Source: a virus | DNA length: 26,264 nt | Virus record (IMG/VR): IMGVR_UViG_3300009103_000137 | Coordinates: 1-26,264 of that record | Strand: one strand, 5' to 3' | Part shown: positions 1,384 through 26,232 of the stretch, piece by piece | Numbering within the stretch: the stretch's first letter is position 1 | Layout: the number at the start of each line of letters is the position of its first letter | Made by a program: the position numbers and the translations under genes | Notes under the pieces: model-generated | What the model was told of the DNA's origin: nothing | Databases searched by the model: none | Seen by the model: only the letters and a program-made list of their open reading frames with translations

Positions 1384-1989
1384 TTATTTAGCATTATTAT
1401 ACCAGAAGGAAAGGACAAATCTCTCTGCATCCTCCACTTTAGTAACATAATGCTTATATTGTGAATTAGAAAAAATACATAACTGACCTATTTTAGGTTC
1501 TACTTTAAAATTCTCAAATCCAGTATGACCTCCATTAAAATCATCATTCAAATATAACATTGCTGCAAAAATATCATAGATGTCATTCTTTTTAGAATTA
1601 TCATAATGAGGATTCATAAATGTTCCTATTGGCCACCTCACCACTCCAACATAATCTAAATTAGCACGATCATCAAAAGATTTACATATAGCAGTAACTT
1701 TATCAACTACATTCATAAAAAAATCTGCCTTTTCCTCCTTCATGTTTATGAAATCTGCATCTCCACCTTGATATGCAGCATGACCATCATCTTGAGGAGA
1801 AGCAACAGGACCTGTAACATCATGAACAACCTGATGTCCTTCGGTTGTTATCGTACTCAGAAAAGTATCTCCACCCCTCTTTTCACTACCATAAGGCATC
1901 TCTTTATTATTTGCATTAGCATAATCTATAAATGTCTTACATTCATCAGGAGTTATAAAATTCTCCTCAACATAAAGAAGTTTTCTCAT
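1384..1989 (-). CDS. 2OG-Fe(II) oxygenase, prolyl-4-hydroxylase type
   Basis: 201 residues. The iron and 2-oxoglutarate residues expected of the P4H-like superfamily are visible: His128 and Asp130 in NPHYDNSKK, the strand AAMLYLNDDFNGGHTGF, distal His180 in QYKHYV and Arg190 in ERFVLSFW. These enzymes couple oxidation of 2-oxoglutarate to hydroxylation of a substrate, often a protein side chain. The start ATG overlaps the TGA of the tail gene upstream (ATGA), so the two are translationally coupled. That context suggests a tail or host-surface substrate, but none can be named. Its TAA stop lies within the CTAAATAAAC late motif of the next gene. Unlike the three oxygenases at 23311-25020 it has the canonical H-x-D motif. 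Confidence 0.85.
   Translation of the reverse strand: MRKLLYVEENFITPDECKTFIDYANANNKEMPYGSEKRGGDTFLSTITTEGHQVVHDVTGPVASPQDDGHAAYQGGDADFINMKEEKADFFMNVVDKVTAICKSFDDRANLDYVGVVRWPIGTFMNPHYDNSKKNDIYDIFAAMLYLNDDFNGGHTGFENFKVEPKIGQLCIFSNSQYKHYVTKVEDAERFVLSFWYNNAK
1385..1391 (-). promoter_or_regulatory. Late promoter motif CTAAATA
   Basis: The minus strand reads GCTAAATAAACAC, 21 bases upstream of the ATG at 1364 of the 91-residue gene. The motif overlaps the last codons and the TAA stop of the oxygenase gene. Its position decides the choice of the shorter start for the downstream gene. Confidence 0.6.
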
Positions 1990-21441: not shown

Positions 21442-22344
21442 TTAAGTCTCAGCAAGTTTCTGGAAATAACTTAAAGCATCATCACCATCATCTCCACTAG
21501 CAGATGCTACAGGAGCAGGTGCTTTAGATTTAAAGTCGGGTGTAAATGTACCACGACCATCACTCTCATCCTCTAACTCTTCATCAAATACACGACGAGT
21601 AGAAGGTTTTGCACCTAGAACATAATCAAGACGCTTCTTCAAGTCATCATAAGACTTGAACTGATCAGAAGCAATAACAGCAGCAAGAGAATACTGCTTT
21701 TTCCAGACTGCTTCTAATGCATCATCATCATCCAAAAGTGGTGAGACAGCCTCAAATTCTGATTTGTCATAATTCCAAAAACCATCCTTCTTAACAATCT
21801 TCAACTTAAAGTTGGCACCTTGCCAAAAGTCGAAAGGATTGATTGGAGTCTCATCCTCAAACTCTGGTTGCATAGATTCTTGAATCTTATCAAAAATCTT
21901 CTTACCAAACTTATAAAGAAATACTCCACCCTCATTTTGAGGATTAGTAGGATCTTTTACGACATAGATGTTTGCATAATAGGAAAGCTTGCGCTTCTGT
22001 CTGCGAACAACATCCTTATCGGATTCATTACCACTGTTCCAGAGTTCACGATTGTGCTCTGATACAGGATCCTTACCACCAGTTGTGGTTAAGGAATTTT
22101 CAATGTACCAACCACCAGGTCCTTGAAATGCATGTGAATACATTTTTGCCCAGGGAATATCTTCCCCTTCTGGTGCTGGTAAAAAACGAATAACAGCATA
22201 ACCGTTACCTGTTTTATCCACTTCAGGTTTCCAGAGACGCTCATCAGCACCCCCACCTGTTGTGTTCATCTTCTCTACTTCTTTGACTAACTTCTGGGTC
22301 AGTGAACCAAGAGAAGACTGTTTCTTTAAGTCTTTAAAAGACAT
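21442..22344 (-). CDS. 32: Single-stranded DNA-binding protein gp32, lacking the zinc cysteines
   Basis: 300 residues, matching gp32: an N-terminal helical oligomerisation part with KKQSSLGSLTQKL, then GNGYAVIRFLPAPEGEDIPW, GWYIENSLTTTGG, KLSYYANIYVVKDPTNPQNE, FLYKFGKKIFDKI and an acidic C-terminal tail (DGDDALSYFQKLAET) of the kind that contacts replication partners. T4 gp32 binds zinc through three cysteines and a histidine; this protein has no cysteine at all, and the position of the T4 C-P-V-C text reads D-P-V-S. The OB fold must be stabilised otherwise. It lies downstream of a perfect sigma70 promoter at 22390-22418 and a CGAGGTAAT ribosome site. Confidence 0.92.
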   Translation of the reverse strand: MSFKDLKKQSSLGSLTQKLVKEVEKMNTTGGGADERLWKPEVDKTGNGYAVIRFLPAPEGEDIPWAKMYSHAFQGPGGWYIENSLTTTGGKDPVSEHNRELWNSGNESDKDVVRRQKRKLSYYANIYVVKDPTNPQNEGGVFLYKFGKKIFDKIQESMQPEFEDETPINPFDFWQGANFKLKIVKKDGFWNYDKSEFEAVSPLLDDDDALEAVWKKQYSLAAVIASDQFKSYDDLKKRLDYVLGAKPSTRRVFDEELEDESDGRGTFTPDFKSKAPAPVASASGDDGDDALSYFQKLAET

Positions 22345-22389: not shown

Positions 22390-22418
22390 ATTATAAAAGA
22401 TTTAAACAGCTCTGTCAA
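22390..22418 (-). promoter_or_regulatory. Perfect sigma70-type promoter for gp32 (TTGACA, 17-base spacer, TATAAT)
   Basis: On the minus strand TTGACA (22418-22413) and TATAAT (22395-22390) are both exact consensus matches, separated by exactly 17 bases. The -35 overlaps the end of the upstream DUF1825-type gene. The predicted start near 22383 leaves a leader of about 38 bases before the gp32 ATG, carrying the ribosome site CGAGGTAAT. This would give strong host-RNA-polymerase expression early in infection. Confidence 0.8.
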
Positions 22419-22740
22419 TCTGATTTCTCATAACTTCAACCATTTTATTCATATTATTAAAAAGAAGATTCATATCTACATTAGAAGGAAGACCCATCAT
22501 AGACGCAGACTCAATAATTTCTTCTTTCATTCTCCGTGCAGCAGGATCATCAGATAAACTCAAACGAGTATAAAGAACTTTTTGCTTCTCCAAAAGTCTT
22601 TCCAAAATTTCAATATGATATAACTGATCATCCTTACACATAGTAGGAAATTTAAAGACATTAGTATAAACTTCTTCTTGAAGTTCACTAATTTCCGCCA
22701 TTTCTGCACGGACAACCTCAGATTGAAAAAATTCACTCAT
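22402..22740 (-). CDS. DUF1825-type protein, 112 residues
   Basis: An all-helical, acidic protein beginning MSEFFQSEVVRAEMAEISEL and continuing with HIEILERLLEKQKVLYTRLS, LSDDPAARRMKEEIIESA and DVNMNLLFNNM-like text at the end (NVDMNLLFNNMNKMVEVM). The F-F-x-S-x-V-V start, E-x-L-L-E-K-Q-K-x-L-Y-x-R-L-x-L-S-D-D middle and final helix match my recollection of DUF1825 proteins, a family otherwise known from cyanobacteria. Function unknown. It overlaps gp59 by four bases (ATGA) and precedes gp32, so a link to replication or to early takeover of the host is inferred. T4 has gene 33 near 59 and 32, but a better gp33 candidate lies at 25299. Confidence 0.7.
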   Translation of the reverse strand: MSEFFQSEVVRAEMAEISELQEEVYTNVFKFPTMCKDDQLYHIEILERLLEKQKVLYTRLSLSDDPAARRMKEEIIESASMMGLPSNVDMNLLFNNMNKMVEVMRNQIDRAV

Positions 22741-23324
22741 AGTACGATTTTTTGGAGAATCTTTTTATAACGTGGTACATCTATATTTAGGAAAGGACTG
22801 TACTTTTTAATTTTTCGACTGACGGTTTCCCATACAGGATCATTTAATTTTTTGTCCCAATCTTTCCTATACTCAAATATTCTATCACATATTACTAGAG
22901 TTTCAAGTGATATTGTCCCACCAAGATAATTCTTCAAAATTAGTGGATGTCCCTCAGAACAATCAAATACCTCATTTACCTTATTTTGCCCAAAAAGGGA
23001 ATTTGCCTCTTCTTTGAAAATATACGAAAGTGACTGAATTTTCTTTTTCCAATCAACATATCGTCCTTCACCTTCTTTGATCATTTCACCAATCCACATA
23101 GTTCCTGGATCTGTCGTATATACGAAATTAGAGACAAAAAACTCTTCTACCTCTTTATCGTTTTTTTGCCGTGCAAACTTTTCAAACCAAAATCGGTCCT
23201 TCCTCTTATAAAAGGCTTTTTGGGTTGCTCTGGTTTTACCACGATACTTGATATAATCATAATGATCCTTAGTAAAGTGATTCTTCAGAGAGAGATAACA
23301 ACGGTAGGCATCAAAAGGCATCAT
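22737..23324 (-). CDS. 59: Helicase loader gp59
   Basis: 195 residues, matching gp59: MMPFDAYRCYLSLKNHFTKD with HYDYIKYRGKTRATQKAFYK, RKDRFWFEKFARQ, EEFFVSNFVYTTDPGTMWIG, and the C-terminal GHPLILKNYLGGTISLETLV with DDPVW-like text (NDPVWETVSRKIKKYSPFLN). In T4, gp59 binds fork DNA and gp32 and loads the gp41 helicase. It overlaps the preceding oxygenase gene by 14 bases and the DUF1825-type gene by four, so the group is translated as one operon ending in gp32. The start could be Met1 or Met2. Confidence 0.9.
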   Translation of the reverse strand: MMPFDAYRCYLSLKNHFTKDHYDYIKYRGKTRATQKAFYKRKDRFWFEKFARQKNDKEVEEFFVSNFVYTTDPGTMWIGEMIKEGEGRYVDWKKKIQSLSYIFKEEANSLFGQNKVNEVFDCSEGHPLILKNYLGGTISLETLVICDRIFEYRKDWDKKLNDPVWETVSRKIKKYSPFLNIDVPRYKKILQKIVL

Positions 23325-23838
23325 TTATTTTATAGTAAATATTTCCAGCAATTACAGATCTTCCCTTACATCTATTTTCTGGTACATGATGAAATAAATT
23401 TGCCGGAAAAATCACCATATTACCAGCCTCTGCCTTTACCCTTTTACCACTACTAGTAAAAACCAAAGGTGAGGATCCTTTAGGAGTATTTACAAAATAA
23501 ACAAACGCAAAAGAAGAAGGAACATGATGATGAGATGTCTGCTGATGACCTTCATTATACACCTGACCCCATATTTGTTGCAAGGTAAGAGTATAATCAG
23601 CTAATATGGCAGGAACAGCATTAACGGGAGAATGTTTAAAAGAAAGAATAATATTACACGCATAATCACCAATTAATTTAAACTCCTTTATACCCATACA
23701 ATGCCATTCTGTCATTAATGCACCCATATCAGGCTGCACTGCTTTCTCTAGAATAATCTCATGTAATTTAGGATTTAACTTCTCTGCATATGGATACTTA
23801 ATAATATGAACTTCTTTCTTATCTGATATTATCATCAT
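23311..23838 (-). CDS. 2OG-Fe(II) oxygenase of the H-x-H type, tandem copy A
   Basis: 175 residues. The core resembles the 2OG-FeII_Oxy_5 (TIGR02466-like) family: His103 and His105 in TSHHHVPSSFAFVYFV, a strand with PKGSSPLVF, EAGNMVIFPANLFHHVPEN with the distal His at about 150-151, and Arg160 in KGRSVIAGNIYY. The aspartate or glutamate of the usual H-x-D/E triad is a histidine here and in both neighbours. Substrate unknown. It overlaps copy B by four bases (ATGA) and gp59 by 14. It shares a 25-base identical DNA stretch with copy B, so the two arose by duplication. Confidence 0.8.
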   Translation of the reverse strand: MMIISDKKEVHIIKYPYAEKLNPKLHEIILEKAVQPDMGALMTEWHCMGIKEFKLIGDYACNIILSFKHSPVNAVPAILADYTLTLQQIWGQVYNEGHQQTSHHHVPSSFAFVYFVNTPKGSSPLVFTSSGKRVKAEAGNMVIFPANLFHHVPENRCKGRSVIAGNIYYKINDAF

Positions 23839-24380
23839 TCAACATAAAGATTACCAGCTAAAACTATTCTACCATCACATTTGTTTTTTGGCACATGATG
23901 ACAATTATTTCCATGAAAAAGAACCAACTTCCCCTCATTTGGAGTAACCCTTTTACCACTTGTAGAAAATACTAAAGGAGAAGATCCTTTTGGAGATTTT
24001 ACAAAATAAACAAACGCAAAAGCAGCAGGAAAATGTGCATGGGATACAGTATAATCTCCTTTATTATACAATGCGGCCCAACACTCTGTTAGTTTATAAT
24101 TATATCCTGCAAAACCCCTAACCAAACCAATAATCCATTGTTTAATTAAATTAAGACTAGGAGTCTCAATTCTATTACCAGACTGCAGGGCCTTTACATT
24201 AGTATTACTCCCATCTAAATTAGTACATTTTTCTGGGTCTAAAAACTTAATTCCCAAATCTGCCATCTCATTGACTAACTTTTCATTTAAAGATTCAAAA
24301 TATGGATGATTATACACAAATACACCCAATTTTTCATTACATATAAAAGTATCATTATAAGATCCTATCCAAACTGACAT
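23835..24380 (-). CDS. 2OG-Fe(II) oxygenase of the H-x-H type, tandem copy B
   Basis: 181 residues. Parallel to copy A: His114 and His116 in TVSHAHFPAAFAFVYFV, PKGSSPLVFSTSGKRV, EGKLVLFHGNNCHHVPKN with the distal His at about 161-162, and Arg171 in DGRIVLAGNLYVE. The N-terminal 100 residues differ much more from copy A than the core does, including an acidic, Asn-rich stretch near residues 47-70, so substrate specificity may differ. The start lies one base after the stop of the third oxygenase upstream. Function is inferred only at the level of an iron-dependent oxygenase. Confidence 0.8.
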   Translation of the reverse strand: MSVWIGSYNDTFICNEKLGVFVYNHPYFESLNEKLVNEMADLGIKFLDPEKCTNLDGSNTNVKALQSGNRIETPSLNLIKQWIIGLVRGFAGYNYKLTECWAALYNKGDYTVSHAHFPAAFAFVYFVKSPKGSSPLVFSTSGKRVTPNEGKLVLFHGNNCHHVPKNKCDGRIVLAGNLYVE

Positions 24381-24381
24381 C

Positions 24382-25020
24382 TTATGCTTTGGTATTCCCG
24401 TCTACCGAAACTAGATGTTGCTCTATAAGAGATACTTGCCCTCTTATTATATTAAAAGCAAGAGTAATTCTTTCTTTATTAATAGTCTGAGGTTCTACAT
24501 GATGGAAAGTGGATGCAGGAAACATAACCATTGTTCCATCCTTACCATCATAACCAATATCATAATCATCAAATACAGTAGGGTGTCCATGATTCTTATA
24601 ATAAATCACACCTGATAGTAATCCAGCATGATTATGTGTTGGATTATCATCTCCTTTATATGCAAAGTTAGTCCAAATATCATAAGAATCAAAATGTCCA
24701 TGCCATTTCCTTAGGGAATAATCACGATGAGAACCTCCCATTCCCCAATACTTTGCAGTCAACCTCAAAACCCATGCCAACCAAAAAGATTGCTCAATTA
24801 AATGAGGAGAAATAGAACACTGATATGAATTATGTTTCTTCCCATCCACAGAAAGATACCCTACATTCTCATGGGCTTTCAATGCTGCTAATGGATGATT
24901 CTTAAACCTCCTACTCTCCTTTACCCAACCATCAATCTCTTTCCGAATCTGTGAAGGAATCTTTGCTACCATTACAGGACATCCCTGCTTTAACTTTTCC
25001 ATAACCAAAGGGTCATTCAT
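24382..25020 (-). CDS. 2OG-Fe(II) oxygenase of the H-x-H type, more distant third copy
   Basis: 212 residues. Same core pattern: His129 and His131 in NPTHNHAGLLSGVIYYKNHG, HPTVFDDYDIGYDGKDGTMV, MFPASTFHHVEPQ with the distal His at about 173-174, and Arg184 in KERITLAFNIIRG. The SGVIYY text is closer to typical family members than copies A and B. An N-terminal helical part (residues 5-50) and a WHGHFDSYDIW segment precede the core. The ATG directly follows the TAG of the 56-residue gene; GAGAGGG about seven bases upstream could serve as ribosome site. The substrate is unknown. Confidence 0.8.
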   Translation of the reverse strand: MNDPLVMEKLKQGCPVMVAKIPSQIRKEIDGWVKESRRFKNHPLAALKAHENVGYLSVDGKKHNSYQCSISPHLIEQSFWLAWVLRLTAKYWGMGGSHRDYSLRKWHGHFDSYDIWTNFAYKGDDNPTHNHAGLLSGVIYYKNHGHPTVFDDYDIGYDGKDGTMVMFPASTFHHVEPQTINKERITLAFNIIRGQVSLIEQHLVSVDGNTKA

Positions 25021-25191
25021 CTATCTACCCTCTCTCGATTTATTCCTAATAGTAATATGATTACCTTCTATAGCAAACTCTAACTTATCTCTATGATCCC
25101 ATAGAAGTTCTTCATAAAGAGAATCAAGTTTATTCATATCATCCCAAAGATCTGTGGGTGTAGGCTCACCCCAAAACGGATTCTCTTCCAT
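25021..25191 (-). CDS. Small acidic protein, 56 residues
   Basis: Translation from ATG 25191-25189 gives MEENPFWGEPTPTDLWDDMN, continuing KLDSLYEELLWDHRDKLEFA and IEGNHITIRNKSREGR, then TAG at 25021-25023. A good ribosome site (AGAGGAAATCC then ATG) and a TATAAT box precede it, and the stop abuts the next ATG. It is rich in Trp, Asp and Glu, with no membrane segment. I have an impression of similar small proteins near gp33 in cyanophages, but no role is known to me. It is the first gene of the transcription unit that leads through the three oxygenases to gp59. Confidence 0.7.
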   Translation of the reverse strand: MEENPFWGEPTPTDLWDDMNKLDSLYEELLWDHRDKLEFAIEGNHITIRNKSREGR

Positions 25192-25298: not shown

Positions 25299-25559
25299 TC
25301 AGAGAGGCAACTTAGCACGGGAAGTCTTCTTCATAAAGTTTAACTCTTGGGCATCGCATTTAATTTTTTCTTTCAACGGTTTTGATATAAGTTTAGGTAC
25401 AGATTCAACATCTATATTATTTTGATCACAGAAATGAACAATAGCATCAATATAATTCATGTCTTTATTCTCTAGAACTAGTGATTCAATCGACTCTGCA
25501 AATTTAGCAGGACAAAAGAACTTGCTTGCTAATACTTTTTCTAATTCATCCTTTGGCAT
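25299..25559 (-). CDS. 33: Late-transcription coactivator gp33-like
   Basis: The ATG at 25559-25557 gives 86 residues (MPKDELEKVLASKFFCPAKF at the start); a longer form from a TTG at 25586 is possible but less likely. The C-terminal half, with MNYIDAIVHFCDQNNIDVES, VPKLISKPLKEKIKCDAQEL and NFMKKTSRAKLPL, matches the gp33 proteins of marine T4-like phages (late-transcription coactivator family) as I know them. In T4, gp33 bridges RNA polymerase and the sliding clamp and, with gp55, drives TATAAATA promoters; nine such motifs lie in this window. The start overlaps the end of the exonuclease gene by 14 bases. Confidence 0.75.
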   Translation of the reverse strand: MPKDELEKVLASKFFCPAKFAESIESLVLENKDMNYIDAIVHFCDQNNIDVESVPKLISKPLKEKIKCDAQELNFMKKTSRAKLPL

Positions 25560-26232
25560 TCTCTGTCCCAGTATTGTTAGATACAAATTCTTTTATATAC
25601 TTCACTAATAATTTAATATAATCCCCTTTGTTTCTTTTGTCAAATACTTTTACCTCTCCACCTGGTGTTACCATGATGGTGATTAATTTCTTAACAGGGA
25701 TCTCAGTTAATTCATAATATGCAGCAGCATAAAACATCTCCTGAACAAAATAATTTTCCAACCATTTCTCTGGTTTGATCTTCTCAGACGTTTTAAAGTC
25801 TATTACTGCCAGTTCACCTTCATACTCCGCAATACAATCAACTCTTCCAGCAAGACCTAGGTACTCGGAGTAAAGGGTTCTTTCTATAGCGTGTATGTTA
25901 TTTATCTTATCCAGATATGGAGTAGCATGATGGAACATAAACTTAGTAGCAGGAAGGTAATCCTCCCACACCAAATCTCTATTTTCCAAATATGCCTGAG
26001 CAGCTTCATGAAAATCTGTGCCACGGGCAGTTGCCTTCTTTGTAATACGGTTTGCTTCTTCTATACCAACTCGCTTACGCCAATCAATAAAGATCTGTCG
26101 GTTATAAAAGGAAGTTACTGATGTGATAGAGGGAACCCACTGACCATCAGGGAGTTCGTATAATCTACACCCAGGTGTTTCTTTCTTTTTTAATTCAAGT
26201 TCACCTAAGTGATTACAATGCTCAAACTTCAT
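25546..26232 (-). CDS. PD-(D/E)XK exonuclease
   Basis: 228 residues with the RecB/MGME1-like exonuclease core: FHEAAQAYLENRD with His75, AIERTLYSEYLGLAGRVDCI with Glu117 and Asp132, and LAVIDFKTSEKIKPEKW with Asp145 and Lys147, then a helix with YFVQEMFYAAAYYELT that carries the conserved Gln and Tyr of this group. Similar exonucleases are frequent in T4-like cyanophages next to replication genes and may degrade host DNA or process phage DNA ends. The ATG at 26232-26230 is 32 bases from the window edge; AAGAGTGG upstream is a weak ribosome site. No promoter can be judged from so short an upstream part. Confidence 0.85.
   Translation of the reverse strand: MKFEHCNHLGELELKKKETPGCRLYELPDGQWVPSITSVTSFYNRQIFIDWRKRVGIEEANRITKKATARGTDFHEAAQAYLENRDLVWEDYLPATKFMFHHATPYLDKINNIHAIERTLYSEYLGLAGRVDCIAEYEGELAVIDFKTSEKIKPEKWLENYFVQEMFYAAAYYELTEIPVKKLITIMVTPGGEVKVFDKRNKGDYIKLLVKYIKEFVSNNTGTENAKG

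What the first reader, a model, noticed from the sequence alone, without database searches (positions are those of the whole stretch)
23311..25020. Three consecutive H-x-H-type 2OG-Fe(II) oxygenases between gp33 and gp59
Three genes in one operon all keep H-x-H, a distal His and an Arg, with stop/start overlaps or contacts, feeding into gp59 and gp32. Single 2OG oxygenases are frequent in cyanophages, but a triple set in the replication/late-transcription block suggests a dedicated modification step, for example of DNA bases, replication proteins or RNA polymerase. The poorly conserved N-termini could give three substrates.
Basis: partly seen in the sequence, partly recalled or inferred. Interest (0 to 1): 0.7.

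Follow-up and report, generated by a model that had tools for sequence, protein, structure and literature searches.

The report
Stacked cyanophage oxygenase genes at gp33–gp59
A marine T4-like phage carries three neighbouring genes for iron-dependent oxygenase enzymes of a kind that is common and poorly understood in such phages; relatives show that one is a long-term resident and the other two were picked up separately at a spot where oxygenase genes come and go, so it is probably not a dedicated three-part machine.

Summary
Three adjacent minus-strand genes (A 24382-25020, B 23835-24380, C 23311-23838) all pass the Pfam cut-off for PF13759 (2OG-FeII_Oxy_5). The H-x-H, distal His and Arg are invariant in 33 A-type and 13 B/C-type relatives. 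Confident AlphaFold models of A and C match 2rg4/3bvc (uncharacterised H-x-H PF13759-type proteins) and prolyl/lysyl hydroxylases.

The interpretation as one dedicated triple set is not supported. In 95 distinct gp33-gp59 sites, 44 have no such oxygenase, 41 one, 9 two; only this window has three. A follows phage relatedness. B/C-type genes need ten changes for ten carriers on the gp59 tree, the maximum scatter. B and C are not sisters (AU p=0.0001). Sister phages ~98% identical downstream carry a B/C-type gene, a JmjC gene, or nothing in that slot. Other relatives lie beside gp43, gp55/gp47, tail fibres and phoH.

Published S-SCSM1 has 24 oxygenases, four consecutive and overlapping. So this is an accessory slot holding catalytically competent, probably independent hydroxylases with unknown substrates: a new example of a known kind. 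The mildly interesting part is rapid oxygenase swapping at the gp59 start codon.

The parts
24382..25020 (-). Gene A: 212-aa PF13759 oxygenase; catalytic quartet H129 (24634-24636), H131 (24628-24630), H173 (24502-24504), R184 (24469-24471)
   Evidence: syntenic between gp33 and gp59 in dozens of marine viral contigs
23835..24380 (-). Gene B: 181-aa PF13759 oxygenase; H114 (24039-24041), H116 (24033-24035), H161 (23898-23900), R171 (23868-23870)
   Evidence: nearest relative L045/L185 (about 63%) directly after A
23311..23838 (-). Gene C: 175-aa PF13759 oxygenase; H103 (23530-23532), H105 (23524-23526), H150 (23389-23391), R160 (23359-23361); 4-nt overlap with B, 14-nt overlap with gp59
   Evidence: nearest relatives L147, L034, L073 (about 54%) directly after A
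25021..25191 (-). DUF7191 small gene (phrog_728) between gp33 and A; its stop abuts A here and abuts gp59 in empty-site relatives
25299..25586 (-). gp33-like late-transcription coactivator (PF16805)
22737..23324 (-). gp59 helicase loader (PF08993/PF08994); its ATG is the fixed downstream edge of the slot
22402..22740 (-). DUF1825 gene between gp59 and gp32
21442..22344 (-). gp32 single-strand DNA binding protein
23325..25020 (-). Variable accessory slot (A, B and most of C), exactly absent in AG-345-E15 (L001), where DUF7191 abuts gp59

Best explanation
The locus is an accessory-gene slot between DUF7191/gp33 and the start codon of gp59 in T4-like marine phages, probably cyanophages. It holds three PF13759 oxygenases. 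A is a clade-stable resident. B and C come from two different branches of a second PF13759 group and joined it separately. Each protein is predicted to form a prolyl-4-hydroxylase-like double-stranded beta-helix with a three-histidine Fe(II) site (H-x-H...H) and an Arg for 2-oxoglutarate. The most likely work of each is an independent hydroxylation of its own target, more likely a protein side chain of prolyl/lysyl hydroxylase type or a small host metabolite than a DNA base. Shown here: genes, fold (A and C), conserved quartet, purifying selection, turnover of the slot, separate ancestry of B and C. Inferred: Fe(II)/2OG dependence, hydroxylation, independence of the three, target class.
For: Family membership. 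Quartet invariance. AlphaFold pLDDT 88.0 and 89.9; best matches 3bvc, 2rg4, then P4H, PHD2, lysyl hydroxylases. dN/dS about 0.12-0.25 in A pairs and 0.09-0.49 in B/C pairs. Site survey of 95 distinct loci: 44 none, 37 A, 7 A-BC, 2 BC-A, 2 BC, 2 other, 1 A-BC-BC; in the gp59-fetched subset of 68: 41 none, none with three. A needs 8 changes on the gp59 tree against a shuffled mean of 30; B/C-type 10 changes for 10 carriers. B+C as a clade rejected, p-AU 0.000136. L049, L050, L086 and L091 are about 98% identical from gp59 onward but differ in the slot. Tandem triples in other phages L070, L180, L216.
Against: No activity, expression or substrate data. B was not modelled on its own. gp59-tree support is weak at many forks. 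Three overlapping genes in one order could still be co-selected. The oxygenase content of the slot is high, which leaves room for a shared theme.
Confidence: 0.72

Rival explanations
1. Dedicated three-enzyme modification step for DNA bases, replication proteins or RNA polymerase.
For: Three catalytically intact genes overlap in one row beside gp33, gp59 and gp32.
Against: Only 1 of 95 sites has three; close relatives with the same replication genes have none; B and C are unrelated acquisitions; kin of B and C sit elsewhere.
Confidence: 0.06
2. The oxygenases mainly drain or sense 2-oxoglutarate and so alter host nitrogen signalling through NtcA/PII, as proposed for cyanophage 2OG oxygenases in general by Sullivan et al. 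2010.
For: Published hypothesis (PMC3037559); many divergent oxygenases per phage would be compatible with a dose effect.
Against: Would not require so many divergent families with conserved family-specific N-terminal halves; uncoupled 2OG turnover is usually slow (established knowledge).
Confidence: 0.1
3. The H-x-H proteins are three-His Fe dioxygenases or cupin-like proteins that do not use 2OG.
For: H-x-H instead of canonical H-x-D in all family members; a weak Cupin_2 hit in C; the PDB relatives 2rg4 and 3bvc are uncharacterised.
Against: The C-terminal Arg of the 2OG site is invariant in all members and the best characterised fold neighbours are 2OG enzymes.
Confidence: 0.1
4. B and C arose in place by a recent tandem duplication.
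For: They are neighbours with similar catalytic halves (41% identity).
Against: C lies in a 31-member clade with 100/100 support without B; B pairs with L045/L185; a B+C clade is rejected.
Confidence: 0.02

Closest known systems
2OG-Fe(II) oxygenase repertoire of cyanophage S-SCSM1 (24 genes; ORF240-243 consecutive)
   Same: Several PF13759/PF13640 oxygenases in consecutive overlapping genes in a T4-like cyanophage
   Different: Array lies between a helicase and tail-fibre genes, not at gp33-gp59; four genes, not three
PDB 2rg4 and 3bvc, uncharacterised PF13759-type proteins of marine Roseobacter relatives
   Same: Best fold matches; H-x-H, distal His and Arg align
   Different: Cellular proteins, 11-18% identical; function unknown
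Prolyl-4-hydroxylase / PHD family (PHD2, vCPH of PBCV-1, Pseudomonas P4H acting on EF-Tu)
   Same: Same double-stranded beta-helix fold, Z about 14-17
   Different: Canonical H-x-D...H triad; substrate loops not comparable from the models
PHROG 81 2OG-Fe(II) oxygenases, single genes of P-SSM2, S-SM2, S-SSM7, Bellamy, P-HM1, P-RSM6
   Same: Homologues of A, B or C
   Different: Single genes at many different genome positions

Membership tests
PF13759 2OG-FeII_Oxy_5 | Profile score above the curated cut-off (27 bits) | tested here: met
   44.6, 31.8 and 37.8 bits
PF13759 2OG-FeII_Oxy_5 | H-x-H...H metal ligands and C-terminal Arg | tested here: met
   Invariant in alignments A1 and A2 and aligned with 2rg4/3bvc
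NCBIfam TIGR02466 | Score above curated cut-off (62.5 bits) | tested here: not met
   19.0, 23.5 and 36.2 bits: related, not members
2OG-Fe(II) oxygenase superfamily | Double-stranded beta-helix fold | tested here: met
   Models of A and C match 2OG enzymes at Z about 14-18; B by homology to C only
2OG-Fe(II) oxygenase superfamily | Canonical H-x-D/E...H triad | tested here: not met
   Third ligand is His in all three and in all relatives aligned; this is usual for PF13759
2OG-Fe(II) oxygenase superfamily | Fe(II)- and 2OG-dependent activity | not testable with these tools
   needs enzyme assay
Protein prolyl/lysyl hydroxylase | Hydroxylates Pro or Lys in a protein | not testable with these tools
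   fold similarity only
Nucleobase dioxygenases (TET/JBP, AlkB) | Closest fold or sequence match to that group | tested here: inconclusive
   AlkB appears for A at Z 13.5 below P4H-type entries; TET/JBP not listed; no Pfam hit to these families
Dedicated three-gene system | The three genes inherited together in related phages | tested here: not met
   1 of 95 sites; scattered B/C

The most novel reading that the evidence does not exclude
The gp33-gp59 slot is under selection for oxygenases in particular. Products made together with the replication genes modify host or phage proteins, and the type present is changed quickly, as in counter-defence or host-target tracking: near-identical phages carry a PF13759 gene, a JmjC gene or nothing at the same point.
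Probability: 0.13. Interest if true: 0.6.

Novelty: new member of a known kind. Interest (0 to 1): 0.3.

Why it matters
2OG oxygenases are among the most numerous and least understood accessory genes of marine phages. This locus gives a clean comparison, sister phages about 98% identical downstream that differ by one oxygenase at one point, which could be used to test what one such gene does. It also shows that nearness to replication genes says little about the substrate.

Tried and rejected
Tandem duplication of B and C: rejected by tree and AU test. Cellular source of A: a scan of bacterial and archaeal genomes with the A alignment found no relative, so A seems phage-specific within the reach of that scan. 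T4-type late promoter (ATAAATA) near the genes: none in the block, and fewer in the window than chance. Sigma-70-like sites: no more than shuffles. Sequence search of solved structures with single proteins: nothing significant; profiles reached 2rg4/3bvc. Literature on PF13759 function: four papers hold the family names, the three read only annotate it. Close-relative scan for C alone: no hit, solved by a profile scan. TET/JBP folds were not listed by the structure search, which does not exclude them. Coordinates of the models were not available to me, so metal-site geometry was not measured. In the table the rows for L001 and L002 were read on the wrong strand and were ignored; their layout comes.

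Full report
Observation. The three ORFs are real and lie as described on the minus strand: A 24382-25020 (212 aa), B 23835-24380 (181 aa), C 23311-23838 (175 aa). The order is exonuclease, gp33, DUF7191, A, B, C, gp59, DUF1825, gp32. A and B are 1 nt apart, B and C share an ATGA overlap, and C overlaps gp59 by 14 nt.

Family and catalytic site. All three exceed the PF13759 cut-off and match phrog_81; TIGR02466 is not reached. In 33 A-type sequences H129, H131, H173 and R184 are invariant; in 13 B/C-type sequences the matching four are invariant even though identity to C falls to about 35%. Pairwise dN/dS is 0.12-0.25 for A and 0.09-0.49 for B/C types (a simple Nei-Gojobori count). These genes are maintained as enzymes and are not decaying.

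Structure. AlphaFold models of A (pLDDT 88.0) and C (89.9) are confident. Both are closest to 3bvc and 2rg4, uncharacterised PF13759-type proteins, then to prolyl and lysyl hydroxylases. Profiles of both families align their H-x-H, distal His and Arg with 2rg4 and 3bvc. The third ligand is His, not Asp, which is normal for this family. B was not modelled separately; it is 41% identical to C.

Site survey. I collected gp33-gp59 intervals from viral contigs fetched by A, by gp59 and by the B/C profile. Of 95 distinct sites 44 hold no PF13759-type gene, 37 A alone, 9 A with one B/C-type gene (7 after A, 2 before), 2 a B/C-type gene alone, 2 another PF13759 type, and only this window three (first pass). 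In the 68 sites fetched through gp59, a less biased sample, 41 are empty and none has three. The nearest named records, AG-345-E15 and AG-345-O18, have no oxygenase there; in AG-345-E15 DUF7191 abuts gp59 and the window's A-B-C block is exactly the missing piece.

Turnover. On a gp59 tree, presence of A needs 8 changes (shuffled mean 30), so A mostly follows phage descent; B/C-type genes need 10 changes for 10 carriers, so they come and go independently (many forks weakly supported). L050, L049, L086 and L091 are about 98% identical from gp59 onward and 85-93% before it, yet after A they have a B/C-type gene (L050), a JmjC_2 gene (L049) or nothing (L086, L091). The gene in front of gp59, whether oxygenase or unrelated, usually ends by a 4- or 14-nt overlap with the gp59 start, so cassettes are joined right at that start codon.

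Ancestry of B and C. C falls in a 31-member clade (100/100) that excludes B; B pairs with L045/L185 (100/82); holding B and C together is rejected (p-AU 0.000136). Kin of C sit upstream of tail-fibre-like genes and directly before DNA polymerase gp43 (these two neighbours named from sequence by eye, not by a family search); more distant PF13759 kin in isolates sit between gp55 and gp47 (S-SM2), near gp43 (S-SSM7), and beside sugar genes (P-SSM2). Place in the genome therefore does not tell the substrate.

Known precedents. Cyanophages commonly have 1-5 such genes (PMC3037559); S-CREM1 has ten, including PF13759 and TIGR02466 types (PMC9964418); S-SCSM1 has 24 (PMC9602691), and its record shows four consecutive overlapping oxygenases, ORF240-243. 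My own loci include other tandem triples (L070/L071, L180, L215-L217). None of the papers I read assigns a tested function.

Mechanism. Most likely each enzyme hydroxylates its own target by Fe(II)/2OG chemistry. The fold neighbours favour protein side chains or small metabolites over DNA bases, but a shared fold does not show function. The idea of draining 2OG to affect NtcA remains possible.

Verdict. Real genes, ordinary kind, with a useful local feature: an accessory slot at the gp59 start codon where oxygenases of several families are swapped between near-identical phages.

Noticed in passing
window 1384-1989 (-): A fourth oxygenase, PF13640 type with canonical H-x-D, so four 2OG-type oxygenases in 26 kb.
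   Followed up: partly
L049 1772-2401: JmjC_2-type gene in the slot after A where the sister phage L050 has a B/C-type oxygenase.
   Followed up: partly
L070 4382-10092 and L071: Phages with about seven oxygenase genes within 6 kb, including three overlapping in a row.
   Followed up: partly
L041 450-1463; L050 570-1055; L032 3102-3659: Oxygenase genes also inserted between phoH and exoA; L050 has one that sisters L049 and L091 lack.
   Followed up: partly
window 23311-23324 and relatives: Unrelated genes in front of gp59 share the tail NDAF/NDAL/DDAL because their stop codon lies inside the gp59 start region.
   Followed up: yes
L048 189-1244: A 351-aa ORF of unknown function, not checked against any family library, between gp33 and A.
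   Followed up: no
window 23835-25020 and 1384-1989, hits to phrog_274 and phrog_2297: PHROG families named DNA endonuclease V / DNA endonuclease match 2OG oxygenases, so those names may be partly wrong.
   Followed up: no
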